Shown: positions 11,126 through 64,000 of the stretch, one piece after another | Position numbering within the stretch: the stretch's first letter is position 1 | Layout of the letters: every line of letters starts with the position of its first letter | Assembly (NCBI GenBank): GCA_019454045.1 | Contig: SKCR01015028.1 | Location: 1 to 64,000, forward strand | DNA length: 64,000 nucleotides | Direction: 5' to 3' | Source: Zanthoxylum bungeanum | Lineage: Eukaryota; Streptophyta; Magnoliopsida; Sapindales; Rutaceae | Made by a program: the position numbers and the translations under genes | Notes under the pieces: generated by a model | Databases searched by the model: none | What the model was told of the DNA's origin: nothing | What the model saw: the letters and a program-made list of their open reading frames with translations, nothing else

Positions 11126-11833
11126 TCACACCATTGTGCCCTTGTACTTTCTCGCAGCCTCCCTACTGTCAATAGTCCCTGTGTACATCTCTTTGGGCAC
11201 AGATGAGGAATTTAAGTTGCCATACCGCCTTGCAGCCTCCCTGCTGTCAAGAGTTTGACTATAGTCATGATCTCGTTTAGGCCCTGATGTGATTGGCACA
11301 TTCATCCGGGAATGTGGAGAAGAGGTGACTGAAGTAGGCCTAGCAGATTCCTTCAAGTACTCCTCAGCTGTGCCAATATCATTTTTTGGTCTAGAGTGCG
11401 CGGCATCTGGTGGTGTAGCCCATGCTGCACGATTTGGCCTCGCCCATCCACCAGTAGTGATCATAGCTGGTTCCATCCTGTCAAGCTTGTTGTGCTTGTA
11501 GTTATCATAATCCCCGTTCTGAATGGTATGACCACTCGGCTTGTAATCACCATAACCAGTATTTCCATGTCCATACTCATGCCCTTGATGGCCTGTAGAA
11601 TTAGGGGTACGGTGCCAAACTGAAGGACTCAGAAGACCAAACCTCTTCGGTTTACTAGCTTCAGTTTGCACCTTAGTGAGAAACTCATCAACCTTATGAC
11701 GAAGGCCATGGCCATGATCTGGACTTGAAGACCTATGCCATTGATCCTTAACTTCTCCATAATCTTTCTCTGCCTTTGGTGCTAAATCACTATAAGTAGA
11801 GTGGCCTCTATACGCATAGCCATAGCCAGCCAT
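11126..11833 (-). CDS. plant hydrophilic His/Gly/Tyr-rich protein, uncharacterised
   Basis: A single uninterrupted 235-codon ORF starting MAGYGYAYRGHSTYSDL and ending KYKGTMV. The protein is hydrophilic, rich in Gly, His, Tyr, Ser and Arg, with no signal peptide or membrane segment visible. A central tract (about residues 85-118) is dense in His, Gly, Tyr and Asp. The C-terminal third contains two copies of a short motif, LDSREAARRYGN and IDSREAARKYKG, about 28 residues apart. I do not recognise a named family. Regular codon structure, a TATA-like box about 90 bp upstream and lack of similarity to surrounding repeats argue for a real host gene. An upstream intron or longer 5' exon cannot be excluded. 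Function is unknown; residue content alone would fit a disordered or stress-related protein, but that is only a guess. Confidence 0.75.
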   Translation of the reverse strand: MAGYGYAYRGHSTYSDLAPKAEKDYGEVKDQWHRSSSPDHGHGLRHKVDEFLTKVQTEASKPKRFGLLSPSVWHRTPNSTGHQGHEYGHGNTGYGDYKPSGHTIQNGDYDNYKHNKLDRMEPAMITTGGWARPNRAAWATPPDAAHSRPKNDIGTAEEYLKESARPTSVTSSPHSRMNVPITSGPKRDHDYSQTLDSREAARRYGNLNSSSVPKEMYTGTIDSREAARKYKGTMV

Positions 11834-12407: not shown

Positions 12408-13027
12408 GTGCCAGGATTTTGATGATGCAAATAAAGTAAAAAGGCTCATAGATAAAAAGCTCAAAAACTTGAAAATTTTGATTAGCGACTTGATTTCGAT
12501 AGTGTCAAAACGTCTAAATATTAGCGAATCAAATTCGATAAAGCCAAAGAAGCAAAAAGATAATGATAAAGCTAAAATGTTGATGAAGAGGCAAAATGAG
12601 CTATAAGATAATCAAGATAGCAAAGATGATAAAGAGCCAAAAAGATGATGAAAAAGTCAAAGTAAGAGTCAAGCAAGATGAAGATCAAAGATGATGATTA
12701 AGAGCTAAAACTAATTGTAAGTGAGTTTATTCAAAAATTTTAAGCTCTTAGGAATCATACATTTTGCATCACTTGTATTTAAACCAGTTTAAAATACTTA
12801 AGAAATCATTTGCACACATTTGCATTAAAATGAATTTCAACGTATCAAATGCATATGCAAATAGCATAGGAAATTTAGCAAATGGATAAATTAAATTTCA
12901 AATGATTTACCGCTAGATAGATATATGTCTCTAGGTTGTTACAAATCAAACGGAACACAATTGTTATATCTAGAACTTATGTTAGAGCCATATTACTACA
13001 ACATATTTAGGATGAGCGTTTTGTCCA

Positions 13028-15187
13028 TGACCGACGTAAACACACGCGTATAACGCAAGCGCACGTATCGTTCAAGTAGTATAAAAAAATCGATCCCACG
13101 AGGACTTAATTCCTACTATTGTTATTAATTATTGATTCTATTTATTTACAAATATCTAATTGAGGGTGAAGAGAATGATTGTTTGATTGGTTGAAAGTGG
13201 TTTTACAAAATAAATAAATAAACAAAAAGACAAAAGAAAATACTAAGGAAAATAACAAAAGACACAAAGATCTAGGGTTGTGAATCCTTCTAATATCTTT
13301 TAAAAGATGAAGTGATTATTTTATGTTTGTGTAATAAATCAGTTTACTAACCTGGAACACTAAATTATGCAAAAGCCTCTGTCGATGGTCTGACGCAAAT
13401 ACCCAGTTTAACCCAATTGAACCATATGTCTATGTCAACCAAATTATCTGGATTCATTAAGTTTAAGTTCCAATTATGGCTACCCCCGCCCGACAGGTAT
13501 ATTCCTATCCTGTAAGGAAATCTATTAAAGGGTTATCTATCCTCAAGGGTGATCGTGAGCTATTAAGTCTAAGGCTGAAACCTAAAATCCCTATGTCTAG
13601 TTCATTTTAGATTTACCACATCAATCTTATTGGTGATCAGACAACAAGAATTATTAAGCTTAAGACTAATAAGTAAACCTTTAAATTACCCAAACTATAA
13701 AATGACCCCTTATAAACCGGTGATATTAGAATTCATCACAACCCCTAGATAACTAACACATAACTAGGGCTAGTAAGAACTTAAAAGTAAAAGACATAAA
13801 GTAAAAATACTGAAAAGTAAAAGACATAAAGTAAAACTGAAAAGTAAAATAAAATAAAATGCTAAGGTAAAAGGAATTACTTTTACTACTACTAATTTAG
13901 ATATCTCCCATAAAATAATATATAAACTTGTGATTCTTTTTCCAACCAGCCATATAGGCGGTATCCTGATTAAGTCAAATTAAGTCCAACCAGCCATAAA
14001 GGCGGAATCAAAATTAAATTACCAACCGACCAATCTGGCCGTATCCTTGATTAGTCAGGTTTAAACCAGATTAAAATGAATTACCAACCGACAAATATGG
14101 CGGTATCCTTTTTAAGTCAATATTTTAAATAGTGAATATATTATTTTTAAGGGAGATTAATCTAAATAGTAACAGTAAAAGAATTATCTTTCACCCTAGC
14201 TGGGGAAGTTACCTCCTCATGGTAAATAGTAAAAACTGTAAAAAGTAAAAAAGTAAATTACTATATTAACAAAACGTAATTAAAATTATTTACAAAACTA
14301 AAAACTAAAAACTAAAAGAAACTAGAGAGAGAAACTCTCTCTTTACAGAGAATAGAAGAGAGAGAGTGGTACACTGAATTCTGAAATCTCGAGCTCAATT
14401 TATAGGCCTCGGTAGGCTTCCAGCGTCGCGACGCCAGGGCCCTCAGCGTCGCTACGCCAGCTTTTGTCGACGTGGCACGCTCTGGTTCGCCGATTTGAAG
14501 ATTCTGGATAAGCTGATAAGGTGACACATGGCAGAGTGGTTGAGCTTCAATTATTGTGACACGTGGCGGCTTCTGATTGGTCGATGAGATTCTTATCCGC
14601 CACGTGTCAGATAAGGATTAGATACTCAATGATTGATGCTGACGTGGCGGTGACGTGGCGACACGTGGGAAAGAGACTGTCGGCACCGTAGGATCGCGAC
14701 ACGTGGCACTTCCTGATTGGCTGATGATGATGTGGCACGACACGTGGCAATGTTGACTTGTTGACTTGTTGACGTGGCTGATGACATGGAGACACGTAGG
14801 ATGCCACGTGGCACACGTGGCGATGATGACTGTCGGCACCGTAGGATGCTGACACGTCGCACGGTGCATGTTAGCAGATCGGCTGTGATGGTGACACGTG
14901 TCACGGTATATTTTAGCAAAGTCAAACTTTTCTCAGATTCTGATTTGTGGACCCGGCGCACGTTAGCACTGTTCGGCGCATGTTATGCGTCGCGACGCGC
15001 GAATTTACCAAAATGTCATTTTTGTCCAATTTTCACTGTTTTGGCCCAAATCACCTCCAGAATGTCCTGAAACTTTATTTATCTACAAAATAACACAAAA
15101 CACATCAAAATATTCACAAAACTCAAGAAACTATAAAAAATATTAGGTTAAATGAGTGGGAAATAGTTATAGATTTACCACTCATCA
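13028..15187 (-). repeat. 3' LTR of element C
   Basis: The plus strand begins TGACCGACGTAAAC and ends CTCATCA. It matches 19092-21303 closely; the main differences are short indels within the CACGTG-rich part (about 14650) and loss of one palindrome copy near 15000. Confidence 0.93.
14565..14905 (-). promoter_or_regulatory. G-box/ABRE-like cluster in LTR upstream region
   Basis: At least eight CACGTG cores in about 340 bp, mostly as GACACGTGGC or GCCACGTGTC. These are consensus binding sites for plant bZIP and bHLH factors. The cluster is upstream of the LTR TATA-like box (minus CTATAAATTGAG at about 14405-14394). Confidence 0.65.
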
Positions 15188-15200
15188 CACCCTCAAACCT
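15188..15200 (-). other. 3' polypurine tract of element C
   Basis: The minus strand reads AGGTTTGAGGGTG immediately before LTR start TGATGAG. The same tract precedes the array LTRs at 32734, 51437 and 56519. Confidence 0.85.
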
Positions 15201-16516
15201 AACATTTTTGTAGTCCTCGAGCAAAACATAAAATAACATAAATAAATTAACTAAGCCACTTTCGTAGGGATCACGGTTGCATTTAGCGTATGCAACAAGC
15301 CTTTAAACCCCTATGTGTCCCTAGTGGACGAGTTGTAGTCTCGTGAGGGTTTACAGCAATGATACCCACAAACATTTTACAAAAGTAAACAGGTAATAAA
15401 ACTAATGCACACAAAAGCAAAAAGACAAGCGAAAAGAGACTAAAGATGTTAGTGACTAATCAGGTGAAACTTCTACTCTAAGTTACTAGTTGTTTTGTTT
15501 CATTCTAAATTACTGAATAAGTAAATTCTCCGATTATTTTTACCATTCTTCATATACACAGCCAACAAAATATTAATCAACTCATTTTTGCCCACAACAG
15601 TCATAAGTGCAGTTGATAAGAGAGTAATATTTTTGTCCTAAAGTTCTATCAGATTTCACATCTTTTTGCAGCAATGGAATAATTTTTCAGATTTTCTTAT
15701 TTTTTCCTTGATTTTTTTCTATTTTTCTCTATTTTTTTATTTATATACAATATCTTCCATCTATGTAGCGAGTGTTGGGTCGGTGGCTCCCAAACCAGTT
15801 GGCTTTAGGGCGCCAGGTGTTAAGACACCCCTACAGACTTAATTACTCAGACTTCAGATATATATATTTTTGCAGCATCTTCGATCCATGTAACGAGCTT
15901 TGGGCCAGTGACTCCCAAACCAGTTGGTTTTAGGGCACTAGGTGTTAAAACACCCTTACAGACTTAATAACTCGGATCCCAGACGTTTTTTTTTTTTTTT
16001 TTTTTTTACTCCATTGCTTTTTGAAATGTTTCCTCCAATTAAACTAGAGCACTGAATATTACAAACTTTTCAATTTTAGCTCATGTCCGAATGTTACTAT
16101 ATATGTTGATAATATCTGTCAACTGAGCATATGAAGATCCATTTTAGTCCGTTTTAAAGAGAATTCACAAATTAAATAATTCAAAATGAAATAAACAAAA
16201 ATTAACTTGTTTCGAAATAGGTTTGAGATACTTCTCAGGAGTGGAAACTCCTTACTCAACTATCTCTTACCAATTTCACATTTTTAGTCAAAATAAAAAC
16301 ACAAAATATTTTTGGAATTTTTGAAAACTTTTCAATTTTTTTTGTATTTTTCGAAAAATTTTGGGCTAAAAATAAAAATAACACACAAACTAACAACAAG
16401 GTACTAATCAACTAATTTCCTCCCCCAAACCTAAATGAGACATTGTCCTCAATATCTTAAACAGTAAAAGGAGAGTTAAGAAGGCCGTACCTGGTTAGAT
16501 GAAAATCTACAGGAAA
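15201..16516 (-). other. 3' non-coding region of element C
   Basis: No gene. It contains the conserved block 15255-15369, a module present twice (about 15764-15860 and 15880-15980: CTACATGGAT..AAAGCTCG..GGTTTGGGAG..CACC), a 23-nt T run near 15986, and a box near 16424-16455 reading GAGGACAATG then GGTTTGGGGGAGG on the minus strand. Confidence 0.7.
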
Positions 16517-17170
16517 TTAAAGGTTAAGATCCAGATTAATCCGACGCCTCTTACCACGATCGTCCTCGGACCAATTTATCTTTGAAAGGATAGGGTCAAC
16601 TTGTGGTTCATAGGCTAAGAGTTGGTCAATTAGATCCGGAGCAGTTCTGGCAGTAAAGAGGAGTTCTTTCACAGGTTTTGACACGAACCCATTTCTCCGA
16701 GCATCATCAAGAAACACACAAAGAAAATCATAAAATCCATCAACGTTAAACAGTCCAAGCGGTTTCTGATGTATGTTCAGGTTCGCCCAAGATAGTACTA
16801 TAAAAATTTCCTCCAATGTACCCAAGCCACCTGGAAAAGCGATAAAAGCATCAGCACGGTTAATCATTTCTACCAAACGTTCAGACATACCTGGCACGAT
16901 CAGTTCTTCTCCGTTTGATGGTTCAATAAGATTTGCCTCTGCCAAGGGTTTTGGGATGATTCCCAAAACATGACTGCCTCCTTCCTGTACAGCCTTTAAA
17001 ACGATCCCCATAAGTCTGAGATTGGCTCCGCCATATATTAAGTGCATATTCCTTGCAGCTAAGACTCGACCCAATTCATGTGCTGCTTCTATGTATTGTG
17101 GTTTAGTACCAACACTAGTACCGCAAAACACACAGATGTTTTCAACTCGTCTTCTTGAAGTGGCTTCCAT
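16517..17170 (-). CDS. LOG-like: LOG-family cytokinin riboside 5'-monophosphate phosphoribohydrolase, element-borne
   Basis: LOG enzymes release active cytokinin bases from cytokinin nucleotides in one step. The 217-codon ORF covers the whole family length: N-terminal ICVFCGTSVGTKP (residues 12-24), glycine-rich YGGANLRLMG (46-55), VLGIIPKPL (68-76), MSERLVEM with the family Arg at 98, PGGLGTLEE (113-121) with the catalytic-motif Glu, then KPLGLFNVDGFYD (136-148). The glycine-rich motif has two changes (Ala49, Arg52) and MxxRKxxM has Leu for Lys, so activity is uncertain. After the fold comes a tail GKRRRINLDLNL, a basic patch plus an LxLxL motif. Plant LOG genes have several introns; this ORF has none. 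It lies inside element C, after a CCCTTTTCAG acceptor-like sequence, and is shared with three array copies. The start at MEATS matches the array copies. Confidence 0.9.
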   Translation of the reverse strand: MEATSRRRVENICVFCGTSVGTKPQYIEAAHELGRVLAARNMHLIYGGANLRLMGIVLKAVQEGGSHVLGIIPKPLAEANLIEPSNGEELIVPGMSERLVEMINRADAFIAFPGGLGTLEEIFIVLSWANLNIHQKPLGLFNVDGFYDFLCVFLDDARRNGFVSKPVKELLFTARTAPDLIDQLLAYEPQVDPILSKINWSEDDRGKRRRINLDLNL

Positions 17171-17688
17171 TTTTTATGTATTTCTTTCTCAACTCTGGAT
17201 GCCTTCAAAAGTGCAATGACGGGCTGAATTTATAGTACCTGAAAAGGGTGAGTAATAATAGCACTAATATCTTCCAGAGGACGATTGTTAGCTAACCAAC
17301 AAAAGAAATCGTGAAAGGTCAAAAAGTCTGGATCCTGTCTACGAAAATAAAGATAATTACAACAGAAAAGTGAATCAAAGCAATAATTAAGGCAACAGAA
17401 TTGTGTACGCAATACGCCACTCGCTTAGTATAAATTCATTAGGATGCATTTCAAGATTTCATTCCTTACTCAGCCATCGCTAATGAATTGTTTCTCATCT
17501 TTGATTGCCAAACACAATTCCTTCTGTCTTAAAATGCTTCGTTTGTGCCTTTCCCTACAAAAAAAATTACACACAAAATTAAAAAGTTCACACAAAATAT
17601 GAAAACAAATTACAACAAATTGCATGGGTTGCCTCCCTGCTAGCGCTAAATTTTACGTCTTCAGCCAGACGTGACTGAAATTCATCTG
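17171..17688 (-). pseudogene. shrunken remnant of accessory ORF upstream of LOG
   Basis: Minus-strand sequence between the GCGCTAGCAGGGAGGCAACCC region (17620-17646) and LOG aligns in patches with the 182-codon accessory ORF region of the array units. Examples are a GATGGCTGAGTAAGG piece near 17470 and the DPDF..LEDISAIITHPF-encoding stretch at 17340-17235, which also occurs at 30580-30675. Most of the ORF, including the Cys cluster, is deleted. Acceptor-like CTTTTCAG lies at 17240-17247. Confidence 0.55.
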
Positions 17689-18194
17689 TTAAGGAGGTTT
17701 CAATGTCGTTTTGGATGTCCGATTAAAGACAATCACGTGAGCGTTGCTTTTGAAGGGTCTCTTCCAACGGTAAAGTGGCAAAAATAATTTTGTTCTATTC
17801 AGTGCTCGTGCCACCTTTTTGCTCCTTGTTGTTCCAGTGATTCCTGCAAAGAAAGAAATAAAATCAGGAGGTCTCATATGGTGTTTGACTTGGAATGGAA
17901 GTTCCATTCTATCAAGCTTTCGGTGATATCTTTGATTTGTACTCCCCAAAACAGCGATGTTTCTCCTGAATGCTCTGGATCTTTATTAAGGTCAAACATT
18001 TGCTCCTCCATTTGCTCTGCTTCTTGTACCATATTTTCTTCACAGATGTATTGTAAAATTTTTGTATTCAGCTCTTTATCTGTCATCTGTGAAATACATG
18101 CTTCAAAATTGTCAACCTGAGGATGCAAAGATGTTTCTAACATTAGGTTTTCATCCTCTGATACGACTGGAATGGATGGTTCAGATAGATCTTC
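17689..18194 (-). pseudogene. coding-like stretch, unrecognised
   Basis: Two overlapping minus-strand ORFs, 18143-17874 (acidic, with a Glu-rich segment) and 17949-17689 (basic, ending SKTTLKPP), follow gag in element C. They occupy the place of polyprotein sequence in complete elements but show no protease, RT or integrase motif I can identify. Could be a rearranged polyprotein piece. Confidence 0.3.
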
Positions 18195-18959
18195 TTAAAA
18201 CATCATGGTAAAGCATGCTCCAAGATCTTCATTTTGAGGATTGAAAGTTTGATCCTCCGTTGTTGGTGCAGTTGGTACAAATAGATCAGCTTCATCCTCG
18301 TCAGAATCTGAATAATAAAAGTCAAATTGAGACTTTGTCGGTTCGGGCTCCTGAACTGATACCTCTGGTTGTTGATATTGCTCAGCCTCCTCCTCTGTTG
18401 AAGTATCATTGTGAAATGATTGGTACTCGAAGGCTTCATCAGAGTCATCCGAAACTGGTTCTTGAGGTATGTATTTCTGGTTTTCTGTGAATTGTCTCAT
18501 TTGATCTGTTATCCTCTGAATGGATTCTGATTGTCTCTGAATACTTTCGAGTTGATTCTGGAATGTTTCAAGCATTGTATCCATCTTTTCTTCTCGTTTC
18601 TTGAACACATCTTTGAGCATGTCAATCATCTGATCTTTTTTGATTGTTGATGAAGATCATTGTGTGGGTGGTGGATAAGATGGAAAATGTGATGGTTTTT
18701 CGTACCATGAAGGATTTTGATAGCTCTGCCACCCTGGATGGTAGTTGTATTCACAATAATCTCTAGGGTGGTTACCATTACATATGTCACATCTCCCCAT
18801 TGCGTTCTGTTGAGCAAATATGGTATTGCTTGGTTCTGGCATCCATTGATAATTGTTGGGCTGGACAACAGGCCTCAGAAAACCAGACTGTTGTTCCCAG
18901 ATGTGGGGTGTATCTTCTTGTAAAGCTTATAATCTTTCAATCTCCCAGTAGTGTTCCAT
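18195..18959 (-). pseudogene. Athila-type gag fragment with zinc knuckle
   Basis: One minus-strand frame from ATG at 18959 to the stop near 18195, broken by in-frame TAA (18929-18927) and TGA (18659-18657). It contains a zinc knuckle CDICNGNHPRDYC (CX2CX3HX4C) followed by the Tyr/Pro/Asn-rich YHPGWQSYQNPSWYEKPS segment typical of Athila-type gag, then a Gln/Glu-rich coiled-coil-like segment and an acidic tail. The capsid-forming N-terminal part expected upstream of the knuckle is absent, so this is a deletion derivative. Confidence 0.75.
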
Positions 18960-19067
18960 TTTTCAATCACCTGAAAAAGAGAGAAATAAAAATTACAGAT
19001 AAAAATAAAGAAAATTAGATACAAGTAAATTAGATAGCTTCAAAATTAATAACTCAAGAAATATAAG

Positions 19068-19085
19068 TCCCCGGCAACGGCGCCA
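19068..19085 (-). other. primer-binding site (tRNA-Asp)
   Basis: The minus strand reads TGGCGCCGTTGCCGGGGA, the complement of the 3' end of plant tRNA-Asp with CCA, as used by Athila/Tat gypsy elements. It is 6 bp from the LTR edge. Confidence 0.93.
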
Positions 19086-19091
19086 AAAACT

Positions 19092-21303
19092 TGACCGGCG
19101 TAAACACACGCGTATAACGCAAGCGCACGTATCGTTCAAGTAGTATAAAAATTTCTATCCCACGAGGACTTAATTCCTACTATTGTTATAAATTATTGAA
19201 TCTATTTATTTACAAATATCTAATTGAGGGTGAAGAGAATGATTGTTTGACTGGTTGAAAGTGGTTTTACAAAATAAATAAATAAACAAAAAGACAAAAG
19301 AAAATACTAAGGAAAATAACAAAAGACACAAAGATCTAGGGTTGTGAATCCTTCTAATATCTTTTAAAAGATGAAGTGATTATTTTATTTTTGTGTAATA
19401 AATCAGTTTACTAACCTGGAACACTAAATTATGCAAAAGCCTCTGTCGATGGTCAAACGCAAATACCCAGTTTAACCCAATTGAACCATATGTCTATGTC
19501 AACCAAATTATCTGGATTCATTAAGTTTAAGTTCCAATTATGGCTACCCCCGCCCGACAGGTATATTCCTATCCTGTAAGGAAATCTATTAAAGGGTTAT
19601 CTATCCTCAATGAAGATCGTGAGCAATTAAGTCTAAGGCTGAAACCTAAAATCCCTATGTCTAGTTCATTTTAGATTTACCACATCAATCTTATTGGTGA
19701 TCAGACAACAAGAATTATTAAGCTTAAGACTTAATAAGTAAACCTTTAAATTACCCAAACTATAAAATGACCCCTTATAAACCGGTGATATTAGAATTCA
19801 TCGCAACCCCTAGATAACTAACACATAACTAGGGCTAGTAAGAACTTAAAAGTAAAAGACATAAAGTAAAAATACTGAAAAGTAAAAGACATAAAGTAAA
19901 ACTGAAAAGTAAAATAAAATAAAATGCTAAGGTAAAAGGAATTACTTTTACTACTACTAATTTAGATATCTCCCATAAAATAATATATAAACTTGTGATT
20001 CTTTTTCCAACCAGCCATATAGGCGGTATCCTGATTAAGTCAAATTATGTCCAACCAGCCATAAAGGCAGAATCAAAATTAAATTACCAACCGACCAATC
20101 TGGCGGTATCCTTGATTAGTCAGGTTTAAACCATATTAAAATGAATTACCAACCGACAAATATGGCGGTATCCTTTTTAAGTCAATATTTTAAATAGTGA
20201 ATATATTATTTTTAAGGGAGATTAATCTAAATAGTAACAGTAAAAGAATTATCTTTCACCCTAGCTGGGGAAGTTACCTCCTCATGGTAAATAGTAAAAA
20301 CTGTAAAAAGTAAAAAAGTAAATTACTATATTAACAAAACGTAATTAAAATTATTTACAAAACTAAAAACTAAAAACTAAAAACTAAAAGAAACTAGAGA
20401 GAGAAACTCTCTCTTTACAGAGAATAAAAGAGAGAGAGTGGTACAATGAATTCTGAAATCTCGAGCTCAATTTATAGGCCTCGGTAGGCTTCCAGCGTCG
20501 CGACGCCAGGGCCCTCAGCATCGCTACGCCAGCTTTTGTCGACGTGGCACGCTCTGGTTCGCCGGTTTGAAGATTCTGGATAAGCTGATAAGGTGACACA
20601 TGGCAGAGTGGTTGAGCTTCAATTATTGTGACACGTGGCGGCTTCTGATTGGTCGATGAGATTCTTATCCGCCACGTGTCAGATAAGGATTAGATACTCA
20701 ATGATTGATGCTGACGTGGCGGTGACGTGGCAATGACGTGGTGGTGACGTGGCGACACGTGGAAAGAGACTGTCGGCACCGTAGGATTGCGACACGTGGC
20801 ACTTCCTGATTGGCTGATGATGATGTGGCACGACACGTGGCAATGTTGACTTGTTGACTTGTTGACGTGGCTGATGACATGGAGACACGTAGGATACCAC
20901 GTGGCACACGTGGCGATGATGACTGTCGGCACCGTAGGATGCTTACACGTGGCACGGCACATGTTAGCAGATCGGCTGTGATGGTGACACGTGTCACGGC
21001 GCATTTTAGCAAAGTCAAACTTTTCTCAGATTCTGATTTGTGGACCCGGCGCACGTTAGCATTGTTCGGCGCATGTTAGGCGTCGCGACGCTGAAGTTCT
21101 TGGCGTCGCGACGCGTGAATTTACCAAAATGTCATTTTTGTCCAATTTTCACTGTTTTGGCCCAAATCAACTCCAGAATGTCCTGAAACTTTATTTATCT
21201 ACAAAATAACACAAAACACATCAAAATATTCACAAAACTCAAGAAACTATACAAAATATTAGGTTAAATGAGTGGGAAATAGTGATAGATTTACCACTCA
21301 TCA
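19092..21303 (-). repeat. 5' LTR of element C
   Basis: Direct copy of 13028-15187. It contains the putative promoter: a CACGTG cluster 20631-20997, TATA-like CTATAAATTGAG at 20477-20466 (minus), and the 12-bp palindrome GCGTCGCGACGC at 20495-20506, 21080-21091 and 21103-21114. Confidence 0.93.
20631..20997 (-). promoter_or_regulatory. G-box/ABRE-like cluster in 5' LTR of element C
   Basis: About nine CACGTG cores within 370 bp, e.g. GACACGTGGC, GCCACGTGTC and GACACGTGTC, together with many CACGTCA/TGACGTGG half-related sites. Being in the 5' LTR upstream of its TATA-like box, it is placed to drive element transcription, including the downstream LOG ORF. Confidence 0.65.
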
Positions 21304-22510
21304 GTCCATACCTGTCACTTTAGAAAATTTTGTAACATTCATCTTACGATTTTTGAAGTTGAATATTTTAAAAATGATAGTTCTATATGTCTAGTTTATG
21401 TATAAATTTACGGAGCTTGATTTGGAGTTTTCTAGAGTACGTTATGGTCAAAATAATGAGCATTGTCAGGATTGCTATGGTTATTGAAACTGACATATCG
21501 GTCTCTGAAATCGGCATACCAATACCAGGCCCGTGGGACTTGAAGTTTTGCACACATTGTGGAGCTAGAACATTTCATATCGGTTTCCATACCTATCAGT
21601 ATTTTGTTTGAATGCACAACTGAAAAAATTTTAGGAGCCGTTGGAAATGTCAGACCAACATACCGATACTGAAGACCGGCATACCTGTCTCATAATAGAA
21701 AAACGGCTATATTACGTTTTAAGCCTATAAATTGAAGGTTGGTTTCATTTTTGCATGGGGAATTTATTTTCAGAGAAAAACAACATCTTCATACATTTTT
21801 ACACACTCTTGAAAAACTTCAAACACATAAAAGAGAGTTTTTATAAATCTTCAATATCTTACACTCTCTAGATCAAAAAATTCATACTTTATCTTCATAT
21901 TCATATTAGTGAGCTTTGATATATTTGGGTTGTGATACTCATATTTCAATCTTCTTTGTAATATTTTGTGAGTACCCAAATTATTGTTGTTAAAATTTCA
22001 TTTATCGAACACTTGTGTGGAAATCCCTTGTGTGAGTGTTGATTGCTCTCAGTGGTGGATTTGTGTAAAGCTTAGAGAGGAGCATTGGTTCAAAGTCCTC
22101 GTAGTTGTAAAATTTTATTGAAACTTAGTAGAAAGTTTCAAGCATGGCTTGAAGTAGTTAACGTAGGCAAGGAGTTGGCCGAACCACTATAAATCCAGTG
22201 TCAATTTTTCTATCCCTATCTCATTTATTTATTGCAAGTTTCATATTATTCTTCCATATAATATATAACTTGCCATTGTTAAAATTAATATTGTTAATCA
22301 CTTTTGGACAATTAAAGTAAAATCGATATTTTATTTATTATTCATTATTGAATATATTAATTGTGCAAATAGAATTCTAAGCATAATTAGTAAATATACT
22401 GACTAAGTAACTTAATATTGAAAAAAAAATAATTCCGTATTATATTTCAAGTACCCAATTCACCCCCTCCCCTTCTTGGATATAGTATTGTTTAAGAGCT
22501 TGTAGGTAAT

Positions 22511-29947: not shown

Positions 29948-30496
29948 ATGGAAGAAGTTCTCGCAAATCTTCACAAGCAATTTCCTTCTCTCCCTCAAAA
30001 CTCTCTTATGAAAGTCTACAAAGCTCGCTTGGAACGGAGAAGACTACTGATGATCAAAGGTATTCCTAATGACATTCATTGGATTATTGAAGCACGGGTC
30101 CGATTGGCAGGTGAGTCTTCTGAATCTTTTGTTTCACATCTGCCTGGTTTAGGAAGAAGCACATTTGCTAAAAAGAGAAGAGCTAAAAGAATGGGTGTTT
30201 GCTATAAATGTGCTCGTATGACATGTAATACTCATTGTCGTTCTTTAGGAATGATGTCTGATAACCGCGAAGATAAGATTAATTTCATTAGGGATGGCTT
30301 GAGTAAGGAGTCTTTGGATGACATATCTAAGACTCTTGAGATGCATCCCAGTGGATATATATATCATGAAATTCGTATGTTATATGCACAATTTCGAAAA
30401 GAAAGACAACAGTACAGTCTCGGGAATCTCACTCAAAAAGACCCTATTTACCAATTTATAAGAAAATTGGATGGGAAGCTTGTCCCTGACGCATAG
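29948..30496 (+). CDS. accessory ORF: basic Cys-cluster protein, nucleic-acid-binding-like
   Basis: An intact 182-codon ORF between the integrase remnant and LOG. Residues 1-65 are mixed charged helical-looking sequence. Residues 68-81 (GLGRSTFAKKRRAK and R) form a Gly-Arg-Ser plus basic patch, directly followed by a compact Cys cluster C85-X2-C88-X4-C93-X3-C97 with His96. The C-terminal half is polar with no membrane segment, arguing against an env protein. The arrangement GRS.(Y/F)A.(K/R)RRAK..G.CY.C is reminiscent of the cysteine-rich nucleic-acid-binding proteins of carlaviruses. I judge this a plausible but unproven relationship, since the Cys spacing is shorter. Related copies at 48701 and 54200 are broken. 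Start chosen at the ATG shared by all three copies. Confidence 0.7.
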   Translation: MEEVLANLHKQFPSLPQNSLMKVYKARLERRRLLMIKGIPNDIHWIIEARVRLAGESSESFVSHLPGLGRSTFAKKRRAKRMGVCYKCARMTCNTHCRSLGMMSDNREDKINFIRDGLSKESLDDISKTLEMHPSGYIYHEIRMLYAQFRKERQQYSLGNLTQKDPIYQFIRKLDGKLVPDA

Positions 30497-30742
30497 ACGT
30501 CAATCAAGCTGTTACTTTCTTGTAAATATTATTTTCTTTGTCTTTTAATTTTGACTTGTTTTGTTATTTTCTCCGACAAGATCCAGACCTTTTTGACATT
30601 TCACGATTTATTTTACTGTTTGCTACTAATAGTCATTTGGAAGATACTAGTGCTATTATTACTCACCCTTTTCAGGATCTATAAATTAAACTCATCATTG
30701 CACTTTTGAAGGCATCCAGTGTTGAGAAAGAAATACATAAAA
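30497..30742 (+). other. spacer between accessory ORF and LOG
   Basis: T-rich spacer with two acceptor-like CAG/AAG sites (near 30578 and at 30671-30675, CCCTTTTCAG). The stretch 30580-30680 has an open frame encoding LEDTSAIITHPF that is also present before LOG in element C, so it may be a leftover exon-like piece. Confidence 0.45.
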
Positions 30743-31396
30743 ATGGAAGCCACTTCAAGAACACGGGTTGTAAATATCTGTGTCTTTTGTGGTACTAGTG
30801 TTGGTACTAAGCCACAATACGTAGCGGCAGCACAGGAATTGGGTCGAGTCTTAGCTGAAAGGAATATGCACCTAGTATATGGCGGTGGCAATCTTGGACT
30901 AATGGGGGTCGTTGCAAAGGCCGTACATGATAGAGGTAGTCAAGTCTTGGGAATCATCCCAAAACCTTTGGCGGAAGCGAATCTAATAGGATCATCAAAC
31001 GGAGAGGAACTAATTATGCCAGGTATGTCTGAACGACTGGTAGAAATGATTAACCGTGTTGATGCTTTTATTGCTTTGCCATGTGGCTTGGGCATGATGG
31101 AGGAAATCTTTACAGTACTATCTTGGGAAAACTTGAACATACACCAGAAACCGCTTGGACTGTTTAATGCAGATGGAATTTATGATTTTCTTTATGTGTT
31201 TCTTGATTATGCTCGGAGAAATGGGTTCGTGTCAAAACTTATAAAAGAACTCCTCTTCACTGCCAGAACTACCCAGGATTTAATTGACCGAATCTTTTCT
31301 TTTGAACCACAAATTGACCCTATCATTTCTCAGATAAACTTGTCTGATAATGATCGTGGTAAAAAGCGTCGGATAAATCTGGATCTTAACCTTTAG
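30743..31396 (+). CDS. LOG-like: LOG-family protein, unit 1, active-site motif altered
   Basis: A 217-codon ORF from MEATSRTRV to RRINLDLNL, same length as the copy at 16517-17170. The glycine-rich motif is intact (YGGGNLGLMG) and the substrate Arg is kept (MSERLVEM), but the signature PGGxGTxxE has become PCGLGMMEE, so catalysis is doubtful. An ATG eight codons upstream (30719) is in frame; the 30743 start is preferred because it matches the element C start. The C-terminal GKKRRINLDLNL tail (basic patch and LxLxL) is conserved. Located after the accessory ORF and before the 3' non-coding blocks, inside the Athila-type unit. LOG converts cytokinin nucleotides to free bases. Confidence 0.85.
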   Translation: MEATSRTRVVNICVFCGTSVGTKPQYVAAAQELGRVLAERNMHLVYGGGNLGLMGVVAKAVHDRGSQVLGIIPKPLAEANLIGSSNGEELIMPGMSERLVEMINRVDAFIALPCGLGMMEEIFTVLSWENLNIHQKPLGLFNADGIYDFLYVFLDYARRNGFVSKLIKELLFTARTTQDLIDRIFSFEPQIDPIISQINLSDNDRGKKRRINLDLNL

Positions 31397-48700: not shown

Positions 48701-49249
48701 ATGGAAGAAGCTCGCGCAAATCTTCACAAGCAATTTCCTTCTCTCCATCAAAAATCTCTGATGAAAGTCTATAAAGTTCGCTTCGAACGGATGAGACTAC
48801 TAATGATCAAGGGTATTCCCACTGATATTCATTGGATTATTGAAGCATGGGTCCGATTGGCAGATGAGTCCTCTGATTCTTTTATTTCACATCTTCCTGG
48901 TTTAGGAAGAAGCACATATGCTAAAAAGAGAAGAGCTAAAAGAATGGGTGTATGCTATAAATGTGCTCGTATGTTTTGTGATACTCGTTGTCATGCTTTA
49001 GGAATGGTGTCTGATAACTGTGAAGATAAGATAAATTTCATTATGGATGGCTTGAGTAATGAGTCTTTAGATGACATATCTAAAACTCTTGAGACGCATC
49101 CCAATGGATATGTGTATCACGAAATTCACGTGTTATATACACAATTCCGAAAAGAAAGACAATAGTATAGTCTTGAGAATCTGACTCTAAAAGACCCTGT
49201 CTGCCAATTTATAAGAAAATTGGATGGGAAGCTTGTCCCTAACGCATAG
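48701..49249 (+). pseudogene. unit 2: accessory ORF with one nonsense codon
   Basis: Same 182-codon length as 29948-30496, interrupted only by TAG at codon 155 (49163-49165). Keeps GLGRSTYAKKRRAKR and the cluster CYKCARMFCDTRC, with Arg in place of the unit 1 His. A 154-residue product including the basic and Cys parts would still be possible. A T-rich CAG acceptor-like site precedes it (about 48670-48685). Confidence 0.7.
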
Positions 49250-49510
49250 ACGTCAATCAAGCCGTAAATTATTGTAAATATTATATCTCTTTGTCTTTTC
49301 CTAATAATTGTGATTTGTTTTGTTATTTTCTTTTATTTTCTCCGACATGATCCAGACTTTTTGACCTTTCACGATTTTTTTTTGTTTCGCTAACAATCGT
49401 AATTTGGAAGATACTAGTGTTATTATTGCTCACCTTTTTTCAGGTATTATAAATTCAACTCATCATTGTACTTTTGAAGGCATCCAAATTTGATAAAGAA
49501 ACACATAAAA

Positions 49511-50126
49511 ATGGAAACCACTTCAAGAAGACGAATTGAAAACATCTGTGTGTTTTGCGGTACTAGTGTTGGTACTAAGCCACAATACGTAGAAGCAGCA
49601 CATGAATTGGGTCGAGTCATAGTTGAGAAGAATATGCACTTAGTATATGATGGTGGCAATCTTAGACTAATGCGGATCGTTTCAAAGGCTGTACAGGAAA
49701 GAGGTAGTCCAGTTCTGGGAATCATCCCAAAACCCTTAGCGGAAGCGAATCTGATTGGACTATCAAACGGAGAAGAACTGATTGTGCCAGGTATGTCTGA
49801 ACGACTGGTGGAAATGATTAACTGTGTTGATTCTTTTATTGCTTTTCCAGGAGGGTTGGGCAAACTTGAACATACACCAGAAACTGATTGGAATATTTAA
49901 TGTTGATGGAATTTATGATTTTCTTTGTGTATTTCTTGATGATTCCCGGAGAAATGGGTTCGTGTCAAAACCTTTAAAAGAACTCCTCTTCACTGCCAGA
50001 TCTGCCCCAGATTTAATTGACCAAATCTTAGCCTTTGAACCACTAATCGACCCTATCTTTTCCAAGATTAACTGGTCTGATACTGATCGTAAAAAGCATC
50101 GGATAAATCTGGATCTTAACCTTTAA
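49511..50126 (+). pseudogene. unit 2: LOG-like, 35-bp deletion in signature motif
   Basis: The N-terminal half is open (ICVFCGTSVGTKP, MSERLVEM, FPGGLG). Then 35 bp are missing between two TTGGG direct repeats near 49858, removing TLEE and shifting the frame. The downstream half is open in another frame to HRINLDLNL at 50126. YDGGN replaces YGGGN. The enzyme cannot be made intact. Confidence 0.85.
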
Positions 50127-54199: not shown

Positions 54200-54746
54200 A
54201 TGGAAGAAGCTCTCGCAAATCTTCACAAGCAATTTCCTTCTCTCCATTAAAAATCTCTGATGAAAGTCTATAAAGCTCGCTTGGAACGGATGAGACTACT
54301 AATGATCAAGGGTATTCCTACTGATATTCATTGGATTATTGAAGCACGGGTCCGATTGGCAGGTGAGTCCTCTGATTCTTTTATTTCACATCTGTCTGGT
54401 TTAGGAAGAAGCACCTATGCTAAAAAGAGAAGAGCTAAAAGAATGGGTGTATGCAATAAATATGCTCGTATGTTTTGTGATACTCGTTTTCGTTCTTTAG
54501 GAATGGTGTCTGATAACCGTGAAGATAAGATAAATTTCATTAGCGATGGCTTGAGTAAGGAGTCTTTAGATGACATACTAAAACTCTTGAGATGCATCCC
54601 AGTGGATATGTTATCACGAAATTTGCGTGTTATATATATTATTCCGAAAAGAAAGACAATAATATAGTCTCGAGAATTTGACTCTAAAGGACCCTGTTTT
54701 CCAATTTATAAGAAAATTGGATGGGAAGCTTGTCCCTAACGCATAG
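54200..54746 (+). pseudogene. unit 3: accessory ORF, broken
   Basis: Homolog of 29948-30496 with a TAA at 54248-54250, loss of key Cys residues (CNKYARMFCDTRF) and frameshifts near 54580 and later. Keeps GLGRSTYAKKRRAKRM. Confidence 0.75.
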
Positions 54747-55010
54747 ACGTCAATCAAGCCGTAAATTATTGTAAATATTATATCTCTTTGTCTTTTCCTA
54801 ATAATTGTGATTGTGTTTGTTATTTATTTTATTTTCTCCGACAGGATCCATACTTTTTGACCTCCTTTTTACGATTTTTTTTTTGTTTAGCTAACAATCG
54901 TAATTTGGAAGATACTAGTGTTATATTGCTCACCTTTTTTCAGGTATTATAAATTCAACTCATCATTGTACTTTTGAAGGCATCCAAATTTGATAAAGAA
55001 ACACATAAAA

Positions 55011-55492
55011 ACGGAAGCCACTTCAAGAAGACGAGTTGAAAACATCTGTGTGTTTTGCGGTACTAGTGTTGGTACTAAGCCACAATACGTAGAAGCAGCA
55101 CAGGAATTGGGTCGAGTCATAGTTGAGAAGAATATGCACTTAGTATATGGCGGTGGCAATCTTAGACTAATGGGGATCATTTCAAAGGCCGTACAGGAAT
55201 GAGGTAGTCCAATTCTGGGAATCATCCCAAAACCCTTGGCAGAAGCGAATCTGATTGGACCCACATCAAACGGAGAAGAACTGATCGTGCCAGGTATGTT
55301 TGAACGACTGGTGGAAATGATTAACCGTTCTGATGCTTTTATTGCTTTGCCAGGAGGGTTGGGCAAACTTGAACATACACCAGAAATTGATTGGACTATT
55401 TAATGTTAAAGGATTTTATGATTTTCTTTGTGTATTTCTTGATGATTCCCGGAGAAAATGTGTTCGTGTCAAAACCTTTAAAAGAACTCATC
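55011..55492 (+). pseudogene. unit 3: LOG-like, truncated
   Basis: The start ATG is ACG here. It shows an in-frame TGA at 55200-55202, a small insertion near 55260, the same 35-bp deletion after PGGLG as unit 2 (about 55365), and loss of the C-terminal third by a deletion that joins LOG directly to 3' non-coding sequence at about 55492. Confidence 0.85.
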
Positions 55493-62279: not shown

Positions 62280-64000
62280 CACGACTTAAGTATATTTGAT
62301 ATCAGCTCCACCAAAACAAATGCATTTAACCTTGGTACACCTGAGAGCCCCAAAGAAATTCTAATTGCAAGTGAGGTCACCTCTGAGGAGCGGGAGAAAT
62401 TAGAAGAAATATTAGTCAAATATGCCAAAGTATTTGCTTGGTCCTATGAGGACATGCCTGGAGTAGACAGAAGCATCGCCCAGCAAACAATACCAACTCA
62501 TCCAAATATGAAGCCAGTGAAACAGAAACTTCGACGGATGAGACATGAGGGGCCGAGAAGGTCAGAGAGGAAGTCAAGAAATAGATAGATGTGGGGTTCT
62601 TGGAAGTAGTGAAATATCATGAGTGGTTGGCAAATATTGTGCCAGTACCGAAGAAATATGGGAAGGTCAGAATGTGTGTGGATTATAGAGATCTTAACAA
62701 GGCTTGCCCGAAAGATGATTTTCCTCTACCTCATATAGACGTACTAGTTGATAGTGCGGCTTTATCTGTCATATATTCATTTACAGACGGGATTTCAGGA
62801 TACAATCAGGTTCTCATGGCTGAAGAAGACAAGCACATGACTGCCTTTGTCACCGAGTGGGGCACATATTGTTACAAGGTAATGCCGTTTGGGCTCAATA
62901 ATGCAGGAGCTACTTATCAGCGGATGGCCACTACATTATTCCATGATTTGATGTACAAAGAGATTGAAGTATATGTGGATGACATGATGGTGAAATCAGA
63001 GACAAGAATCGGGCATATAGAAGTGCTGGAGAAGTTCATTCAGAGAGTTGACAAATACAACTTGCGGCTTAATCCCAAGAAATGTGTGTTTGGGGTAACA
63101 TCAGGAAAATTGCTGGGGCATACAGTAGGAATGGGAGGGATAGAAGTAGACTCTGATAAGATCAAAGCAATCACCAAAATGCCCGCACCAAAGACTGAGA
63201 AAAAGTTAGAGCATTCCTCAGGAAAATTCAGTATATCAGTCGGTTCATCGCCAAGTTGACGTCAGTATGTGAGCCTATCTTCAAACTACTGAGAAAAGAC
63301 CAACCAGTGAAATGGAATGAGCAATGTCAAGCAGCATTCAACAAGATCAGAGAATACTTGGTAAAGCCTCCTGTATTGAAACCTCCAAGATCGGGCAAAC
63401 CCTTAGTACTGTATTTGGCCATAGAATCAGAAGCACTGAGGGAAATGATGGTACAGGCAGATGAGACGGGTGTAGAGCATGCGGTCTACTATCTCAGTAA
63501 GAAGATAATTCAGTATGAAGCCCTCTATCAAGAAGTATAGAAGATCTGTTTGGCAGTGGTATGGGCGTCCAGAAAATTACGTCATTACTTCCAATCTTAC
63601 AAGATCCATGTGGTAGCAAAGGAGAATCCCTTGAAGTTTCTACATTCAGTACCTTCGCTAGTGGGGAAGTTGGGCAGATGGTTAGTGTTGCTGACAGAGT
63701 TTGACATTGAGTACCTCACTTCCAAAGTAATCAAAGGGCGAGCCGTAGCAGAGTTCCTGGCATTGCAACCTATTGAAGGGGATCAGTACAAGTTTGAATT
63801 CCCAGATGAAGAGATCCAAGCAATAACAGTTCAAGGATGGAAGATGTATTTCAACGGAGTAGTGAATTACAAAGGAGCCGAAATTGGGATCGTGATACTG
63901 ACCCCCGAGGGAGAAACCTTGCCTATGGCCAAGAGGTTGACGTTCGGAGTAACTAACAACATGGCCGAGTACGAAGCATGTGCTTTTGGATTAACTGCAC
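62280..64000 (+). pseudogene. Tat/Retand-type gypsy pol: RT, RNase H and second RNase H
   Basis: 62330-62550 encodes the RT entry region (VFAWSYEDMPG, KQKLRRMR). 62591-63205 is the RT core with WLANIVPVPKK, MCVDYRDLNKACPKDDFPLP, SFTDGISGYNQ, MPFGLNNAGATYQR and YVDDMMVKS (YVDD at 62972-62983). 63210-63700 is the RT-linked RNase H (LSKKIIQYE, FDIEYL). After a linker, 63835-64000 begins the additional archaeal-like RNase H of the Tat lineage (TNNMAEYEAC). Breaks are a frameshift near 62550, TAG at 62582-62584, a frameshift near 63208 and TAG at 63538-63540. The second RNase H has Asn (63853-63855) where the catalytic Asp is expected. It runs off the right edge. Confidence 0.88.

What the first reader, a model, noticed from the sequence alone, without database searches (positions are those of the whole stretch)
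16517..17170. LTR retrotransposon carrying an uninterrupted cytokinin-activating LOG gene
The element at 13028-21303 is delimited by LTRs, primer site and a perfect GTCCA duplication, and has a 217-codon LOG-family ORF inside it in the same orientation. The ORF includes PGGLGTLEE and covers full family length. Gene fragments inside plant LTR elements are known, but a full-length hormone-activation enzyme kept open in an Athila-type element is striking. I know of no description of it, which I cannot verify.
Basis: partly seen in the sequence, partly recalled or inferred. Interest (0 to 1): 0.93.

Follow-up and report, generated by a model that had tools for sequence, protein, structure and literature searches.

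The report
Retrotransposon carrying a cytokinin-activating LOG gene
A jumping element with thousands of copies in this large plant genome carries a full-length gene for a plant hormone-activating enzyme, kept by natural selection as the element multiplied and often found beside a gene resembling a plant-virus protein.

Summary
A 217-codon type-I LOG ORF (16517-17170, minus) lies inside an LTR element (13028-21303) with a GTCCA duplication and LTRs at K2P 0.018. A LOG-specific motif occurs 17,703 times in the 3.96-Gb genome (reversed control 0), and LTR sequence follows LOG at 1.2-1.4 kb in 21 of 22 fetched loci. One copy read with gag, RT and integrase carries LOG between pol and the 3' LTR; the window's copy is a pol-less form. 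In 40 contig-order copies plus the window's, internal branches show omega 0.35 and 1 stop where 36 are expected; shifted frames show no constraint. So LOG was kept as protein while the family spread, though only 6 of the 40 are complete. Further features: a basic-plus-LxLxL tail absent from 113 ordinary LOG proteins, and an upstream ORF matching Pfam Viral_NABP above cut-off. The novelty claim fails in part: a LOG (YgdH) domain in Gypsy elements of Citrus and Populus is in print (PMC9289625). Newly seen here are the scale, the selection test, the tail and the virus-like companion. Activity and benefit to the element are inferred; the window's copy has two odd glycine-loop changes and may be weak.

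The parts
13023..13027 (.). target-site duplication GTCCA
13028..15187 (-). 3' LTR of the element
   Evidence: direct repeat; K2P 0.0178 to the other LTR over 2159 aligned sites, 54 gap columns left out
16517..17170 (-). LOG ORF, 217 aa: PF03641/TIGR00730, PGGLGTLEE intact, C-terminal tail GKRRRINLDLNL; deviates at G49A and G52R
18195..18629 (-). ORF without Pfam match above cut-off, part of the 5' region typical of pol-less copies (in L010 a single 419-codon frame and in L024 a 130-codon frame hold a CX2CX3HX4C motif)
19068..19085 (-). primer binding site TGGCGCCGTTGCCGGGGA (assignment to tRNA-Asp recalled)
19092..21303 (-). 5' LTR of the element
21304..21308 (.). target-site duplication GTCCA
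29948..30496 (+). Viral_NABP/Carla_C4-like ORF, 182 aa, upstream of the second LOG copy
30743..31396 (+). second LOG copy, open frame, 79% aa identity to the first; its PGGLGT motif is altered
48701..49264 (+). Viral_NABP/Carla_C4-like sequence (open over 48701-49165)
49511..50123 (+). third LOG copy, frame broken
54200..54761 (+). Viral_NABP/Carla_C4-like sequence by tblastn, frame broken
55014..55482 (+). fourth LOG copy, broken

Best explanation
SHOWN: this is a pol-less copy of a very abundant Ty3/gypsy (Athila-like) family that carries an intron-less LOG gene. In the one gag-pol copy read, LOG lies between pol and the 3' LTR, where Athila relatives can carry an env-like ORF (recalled). 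The LOG reading frame evolved under purifying selection while the family multiplied. INFERRED: the ORF is made as an active cytokinin riboside 5'-monophosphate phosphoribohydrolase from a 3'-proximal message, and raises active cytokinin in the cell where the element is expressed. That would keep cells dividing and favour meristem and germ-line transmission of new insertions. The conserved basic and LxLxL tail suggests action in the nucleus or contact with a corepressor. The virus-like NABP ORF upstream, where present, may dampen silencing. Pol-less copies are mobilised in trans by gag-pol copies.
Against: No expression, enzyme or localisation data. Only 6 of 40 contig-order copies are complete. 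The window's copy carries A49 and R52 where 45 and 44 of 47 aligned rows have glycine. Terminal-branch omega is 0.55, not 1, so either some filtering remains in the sample or much of those branches predates insertion. The six pol-less copies compared do not form a clade in the LOG tree, so selection within a pol-less lineage is not shown. The tail signal in own-genome copies rests on few changes (12 N, 13 S internal). The use of cytokinin to the element is untested.
Confidence: 0.6

Rival explanations
1. Passenger: a captured LOG sequence that hitch-hikes with a successful element and has no role for it.
For: 34 of 40 sampled copies are not complete, one of them cut by a contig end. Gene capture by plant LTR elements without function is common (recalled).
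Against: Internal-branch omega 0.35 and 1 stop against 36 expected; frames shifted by 1 or 2 show no constraint. Relatives at about 50% identity in Populus, Paulownia and Reevesia records keep length 217 and the same kind of tail.
Confidence: 0.12
2. The protein serves the element by another route: a nuclear nucleotide-binding LOG-fold protein whose tail recruits a corepressor or the integration complex, cytokinin being irrelevant.
For: A tail of basic residues plus LxLxL is absent from 113 ordinary LOG of matching length and disordered in the model (residues 204-217), as expected for a short binding motif (EAR reading recalled).
Against: The catalytic motif is near-invariant: 46 or 47 of 47 rows at seven checked positions in 113-121, R98 in 43 of 47.
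Confidence: 0.2
3. Selection is for the host: some LOG copies were kept as host cytokinin genes.
For: Complete frames exist (6 of 40).
Against: Copies are dispersed, LTR-linked and mostly decayed; the constraint sits on internal branches shared by several insertions.
Confidence: 0.05
4. Ordinary host LOG gene into which LTRs inserted separately.
For: None found.
Against: LTR at the same distance in 21 of 22 loci, perfect duplication around the whole unit, no introns.
Confidence: 0.01

Closest known systems
YgdH/LOG domain in Gypsy elements of Citrus and Populus (PMC9289625, section 12 and passages read; Steinbauerova et al. 2011, not read)
   Same: A LOG-family domain as an extra domain of plant Ty3/gypsy elements.
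   Different: Reported as a domain in consensuses of a few species. Section 12 says nothing on copy number, selection, tail, or an NABP-like neighbour of this domain.
Athila/Calypso lineage with env-like ORF (PMC7264820 and PMC6317226: passages, and section 13 of the latter)
   Same: OTA-type gypsy, long LTRs, extra ORF between pol and 3' LTR, no second RNase H between RNase H and integrase in the copy read.
   Different: The extra ORFs are an NABP-like protein and LOG; no PF03078 match in the ORFs scanned.
Phalaenopsis gypsy elements with an AlkB m6A demethylase (PMC9289625, abstract)
   Same: A host-like enzyme domain fixed in a gypsy lineage with a proposed role against host control.
   Different: Other enzyme, Ogre-like element; there the activity was assayed.
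Carlavirus-type cysteine-rich nucleic-acid-binding proteins (PF05515/PF01623)
   Same: Basic stretch followed by a Cys cluster; Pfam match at E<=0.001 in 35 and 30 of 41 aligned members.
   Different: Encoded by a retroelement; in the window's copy only residues 35-120 of 182 match, and only part of the profile; function untested.

Membership tests
type-I LOG (cytokinin riboside 5'-monophosphate phosphoribohydrolase) | family profile over full length | tested here: met
   PF03641 131/131, TIGR00730 161 bits over cut-off 96; the NCBI equivalog model NF058542 scores 108, under its cut-off 300
type-I LOG (cytokinin riboside 5'-monophosphate phosphoribohydrolase) | PGGxGTxxE motif and conserved Arg | tested here: met
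   R98 and PGGLGTLEE at 113-121 in the window copy; the role of these residues is recalled
type-I LOG (cytokinin riboside 5'-monophosphate phosphoribohydrolase) | glycine-rich GGGxxGLMG loop | tested here: not met
   window copy has GGANLRLMG (A49, R52); glycine in 45 and 44 of 47 rows. This speaks against activity of this copy rather than against the descent of the protein; its standing as a defining feature is my reading of the alignment
type-I LOG (cytokinin riboside 5'-monophosphate phosphoribohydrolase) | fold | tested here: met
type-I LOG (cytokinin riboside 5'-monophosphate phosphoribohydrolase) | phosphoribohydrolase activity | not testable with these tools
   needs assay
LTR retrotransposon | LTR pair, target-site duplication, primer site | tested here: met
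Athila lineage (OTA superclade) | no additional RNase H between RNase H and integrase, where Ogre and Retand carry one | tested here: met
   gag-pol copy L014: one RNase H-like stretch read by eye, then integrase (Pfam RVT_1, Integrase_H2C2, rve); criterion from PMC6317226. Positions before RT and after integrase were not checked
Athila lineage (OTA superclade) | position in RT/RH/INT tree | not tested
   no reference set at hand
Athila lineage (OTA superclade) | PF03078 ORF (in 16% of Athila elements, PMC6317226) | tested here: inconclusive
   no match in the 13 ORF pieces scanned; not required for membership
Viral_NABP / Carla_C4 cysteine-rich proteins | Pfam profile above cut-off | tested here: met
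   34.9 and 27.0 bits against 23 and 20.9 for window:29948-30493; 150 of 150 scored genome places over the PF05515 cut-off, of 19,137 first-look candidates (its 14 control genomes, none with a match, are prokaryotes)
Viral_NABP / Carla_C4 cysteine-rich proteins | silencing suppression | not testable with these tools
   reported for some viral members (PMC12172455, passages)

The most novel reading that the evidence does not exclude
A plant retrotransposon lineage carries a two-gene host-manipulation cassette in the env position: a virus-like zinc-finger protein that blunts RNA silencing, and a nuclear, tail-bearing LOG that locally activates cytokinin. It thereby couples its own spread to meristem cell division, and has kept this strategy across rosids and asterids.
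Probability: 0.22. Interest if true: 0.92.

Novelty: new variant of a known kind. Interest (0 to 1): 0.68.

Why it matters
If the enzyme is active, a selfish element makes a plant growth-hormone step its own. That offers a direct test of whether transposons steer host development to reach the germ line. More than 17,000 motif-bearing copies in one genome also mean that LOG gene counts and hormone-pathway annotations can be inflated by transposons; several relatives carry LOG-type names. The companion ORF links a plant retroelement family with a virus protein family that includes silencing suppressors; I found no report of that link in three literature listings.

Tried and rejected
Separate LTR insertion around a host gene: rejected. 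Chance ORF: rejected. Sampling artefact in the selection test: the first set (omega 0.195 internal, 0.465 terminal) was picked by top Pfam score, so I repeated it on contig-order copies with the motif codons masked, which raised the internal value to 0.35 but kept the signal. In one search, 41 of the 52 matches were used; 11 were dropped for gaps or under 190 aligned residues, and six duplicate loci had been left out before. In one search (NABP-like ORF, 18 copies), 7 fragments were dropped. Selection inside the pol-less form alone: not shown, because the six copies are scattered in the LOG tree.

Led nowhere: relatives in viral contigs (55 and 70 pattern matches, none confirmed); solved relatives of the NABP-like protein (best E 0.28); its model has pLDDT 57 and was not used; ordinary host LOG exons could not be seen, because the 150 scored of 57,892 candidates were long single-exon matches of the element type (47-50% identity); papers on LOG motif residues (none). 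Host species not identified. Context of LOG relatives in other plants could not be read; their element origin rests on PMC9289625, multiplicity and tail. The ordinary LOG set comes from the 120 best hits to At2g37210, so the tails of more distant ordinary LOG were not sampled; 1ydh (At5g11950) has 10 residues left after the aligned part.

Full report

The family. The genome (3.96 Gb, unnamed; a plant by inference) holds 17,703 exact matches to a degenerate 29-mer for PGGLGTLEEI, 0 for the reversed pattern. The pattern excludes the Tyr and Leu of At2g37210-type LOG (PGGYGTLEEL), so it should count mostly the element type. A protein search lists the 150 scored of 70,563 first-look candidates, at 92% identity or more. 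LTR starts (29-mer, up to 3 mismatches) occur 42,059 times, control 0. In 22 loci of 10 kb taken from the Pfam list, LTR sequence (over 100 bp) follows LOG in 21, at 1.2-1.4 kb, though only 184 bp of it in one; it lies on both sides in 12, and one locus has none (the stretches are too short for the upstream LTR of long copies). As a check that does not depend on Pfam score, 5 of 32 exact LTR starts on contigs C3-C155 lie 1635-1653 bp beyond a LOG motif on the same strand, with 0.02 expected and 0 on the opposite strand; four pairs of LTR starts are 5.8-7.7 kb apart and one 13.6 kb. Three layouts were seen: copies like the window's (L009, L010, L021, L024, L030) without pol and without the NABP-like ORF; copies with gag and the end of integrase but no RT in the internal part (L011, L013); and one gag-pol copy on contig C21229 with LTRs (K2P 0.0278), duplication GATAT/GATAT, Retrotrans_gag, RVT_1, an RNase H-like stretch (by eye), Integrase_H2C2 and rve, NABP-like sequence, then LOG and the 3' LTR. 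Several of its frames are broken. LOG there sits between pol and the 3' LTR in sense orientation.

Selection. In 40 copies taken in contig order, six have a complete frame (one of the 34 others was cut by a contig end). With the motif codons masked, internal branches show 184 nonsynonymous, 209 synonymous and 1 stop change, omega 0.348 (codon bootstrap 0.262-0.450), 36 stops expected; terminal branches 0.550 with 41 stops, 59 expected. Reading the same alignment one or two bases out of frame gives internal values of 1.39 and 2.78. A set chosen by top Pfam score gives 0.195, both sets together 0.269, and the 35 rows over 88% identical to the window's copy 0.242. Pairwise dN/dS among six pol-less copies is 0.234 and among twelve others 0.233, but the six are no clade in the LOG tree, so this adds nothing on the pol-less form itself; it may mean that such copies arose or recombined repeatedly, or that the tree is poorly resolved. 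Ancestral states are by parsimony on a FastTree tree. The reading is that the protein was needed in the lineages that multiplied, and copies decay after insertion: selection at the level of the element.

The tail. Element-type LOG proteins end in a run of basic residues followed by LxLxL, here GKRRRINLDLNL. Of the 99 relatives of 205-260 aa among the 120 listed (of 695 found), 89 have the pattern; of the other ten, four are near misses and six end early. Of 113 ordinary LOG of that length, none has it. A tree of 43 proteins separates 29 element-type from 13 ordinary LOG with support 100/100, with Xanthoceras P0022 on the element side (group labels were mine, and the genomic context of rows from other species was not seen). 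LxLxL is the core of the EAR repression motif and the basic run resembles a nuclear signal (both recalled); neither is tested.

The companion ORF. Upstream of LOG in 17 of 22 fetched 10-kb loci, partial in several, and at 29948, 48701 and 54200 in this window, lies sequence for a protein of about 182-192 aa with a KKRRAKR-like run followed by a Cys cluster. It matches PF05515 Viral_NABP (34.9 bits, cut-off 23) and PF01623 Carla_C4 (27.0, cut-off 20.9); 35 and 30 of 41 aligned members match at E 0.001. In the genome the 150 scored of 19,137 first-look places exceed the cut-off. Relatives occur in records named Populus, Xanthoceras, Acer, Rhamnella and Orobanche. Internal-branch omega is 0.40 (69 N, 56 S, 3 stops; 18 copies), a small sample and weaker than for LOG. 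Some viral members of this class are silencing suppressors with a nuclear signal and zinc finger (PMC12172455, passages). The window's own element lacks this ORF. Whether virus or element had it first cannot be told here.

Limits. The window's LOG has A49 and R52 in the glycine loop where 45 and 44 of 47 rows have Gly, so this copy may be inactive or weak; the catalytic motif is intact. Expression, activity and benefit are not shown. The NCBIfam equivalog model is not reached (108 of 300 bits).

What was known. PMC9289625 (section 12 read) found the YgdH domain in Gypsy consensuses of two Citrus species and, without its filter, Populus trichocarpa, and points to Steinbauerova et al. 2011 (not held). 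Searches for LONELY GUY with LTR retrotransposon (2 papers; the second, PMC8087826, seen only as a listing), YgdH with retrotransposon (1), Athila with cytokinin and others (3) and a broader one (106 papers, 15 listed) gave no further description in the listings. For the NABP domain in retrotransposons, searches list none by title, and PMC9289625 does not mention it. The library lacks most subscription journals, so absence there is weak.

Verdict. A genuine and striking member of a known but thinly described kind. The scale, the selection evidence, the tail and the virus-like partner go beyond what I found in print.

Noticed in passing
window 29948-30517, 48701-49264, 54200-54761: Sequences matching carlavirus nucleic-acid-binding proteins upstream of further LOG copies; Pfam PF05515/PF01623 for the first two, tblastn for the third. 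Relatives in records of several eudicots.
   Followed up: partly
G000:C23952:418412-429796: Seven Viral_NABP matches on one strand at about 1.86-kb spacing, as if a piece of the element had become a tandem array (coordinates).
   Followed up: no
L011:4784-5698 and other copies with open frames of 303-312 aa: In some copies the LOG frame is open upstream for about 85 codons, including a hydrophobic stretch; in L011 without an upstream ATG.
   Followed up: no
window 22000-64000: Dense nest of related repeats; long direct repeats such as 36511-39071/44558-47124 at 97.8% and another reverse transcriptase ORF at 62591-63259.
   Followed up: no
window 11126-11833 (-): 235-aa open frame without Pfam match outside the element; a possible host gene.
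   Followed up: no
one search list: Many jgi and ena contigs carry full-length element-type LOG, some labelled as cytokinin enzyme or TIGR00730 protein; perhaps plant DNA in environmental samples.
   Followed up: no
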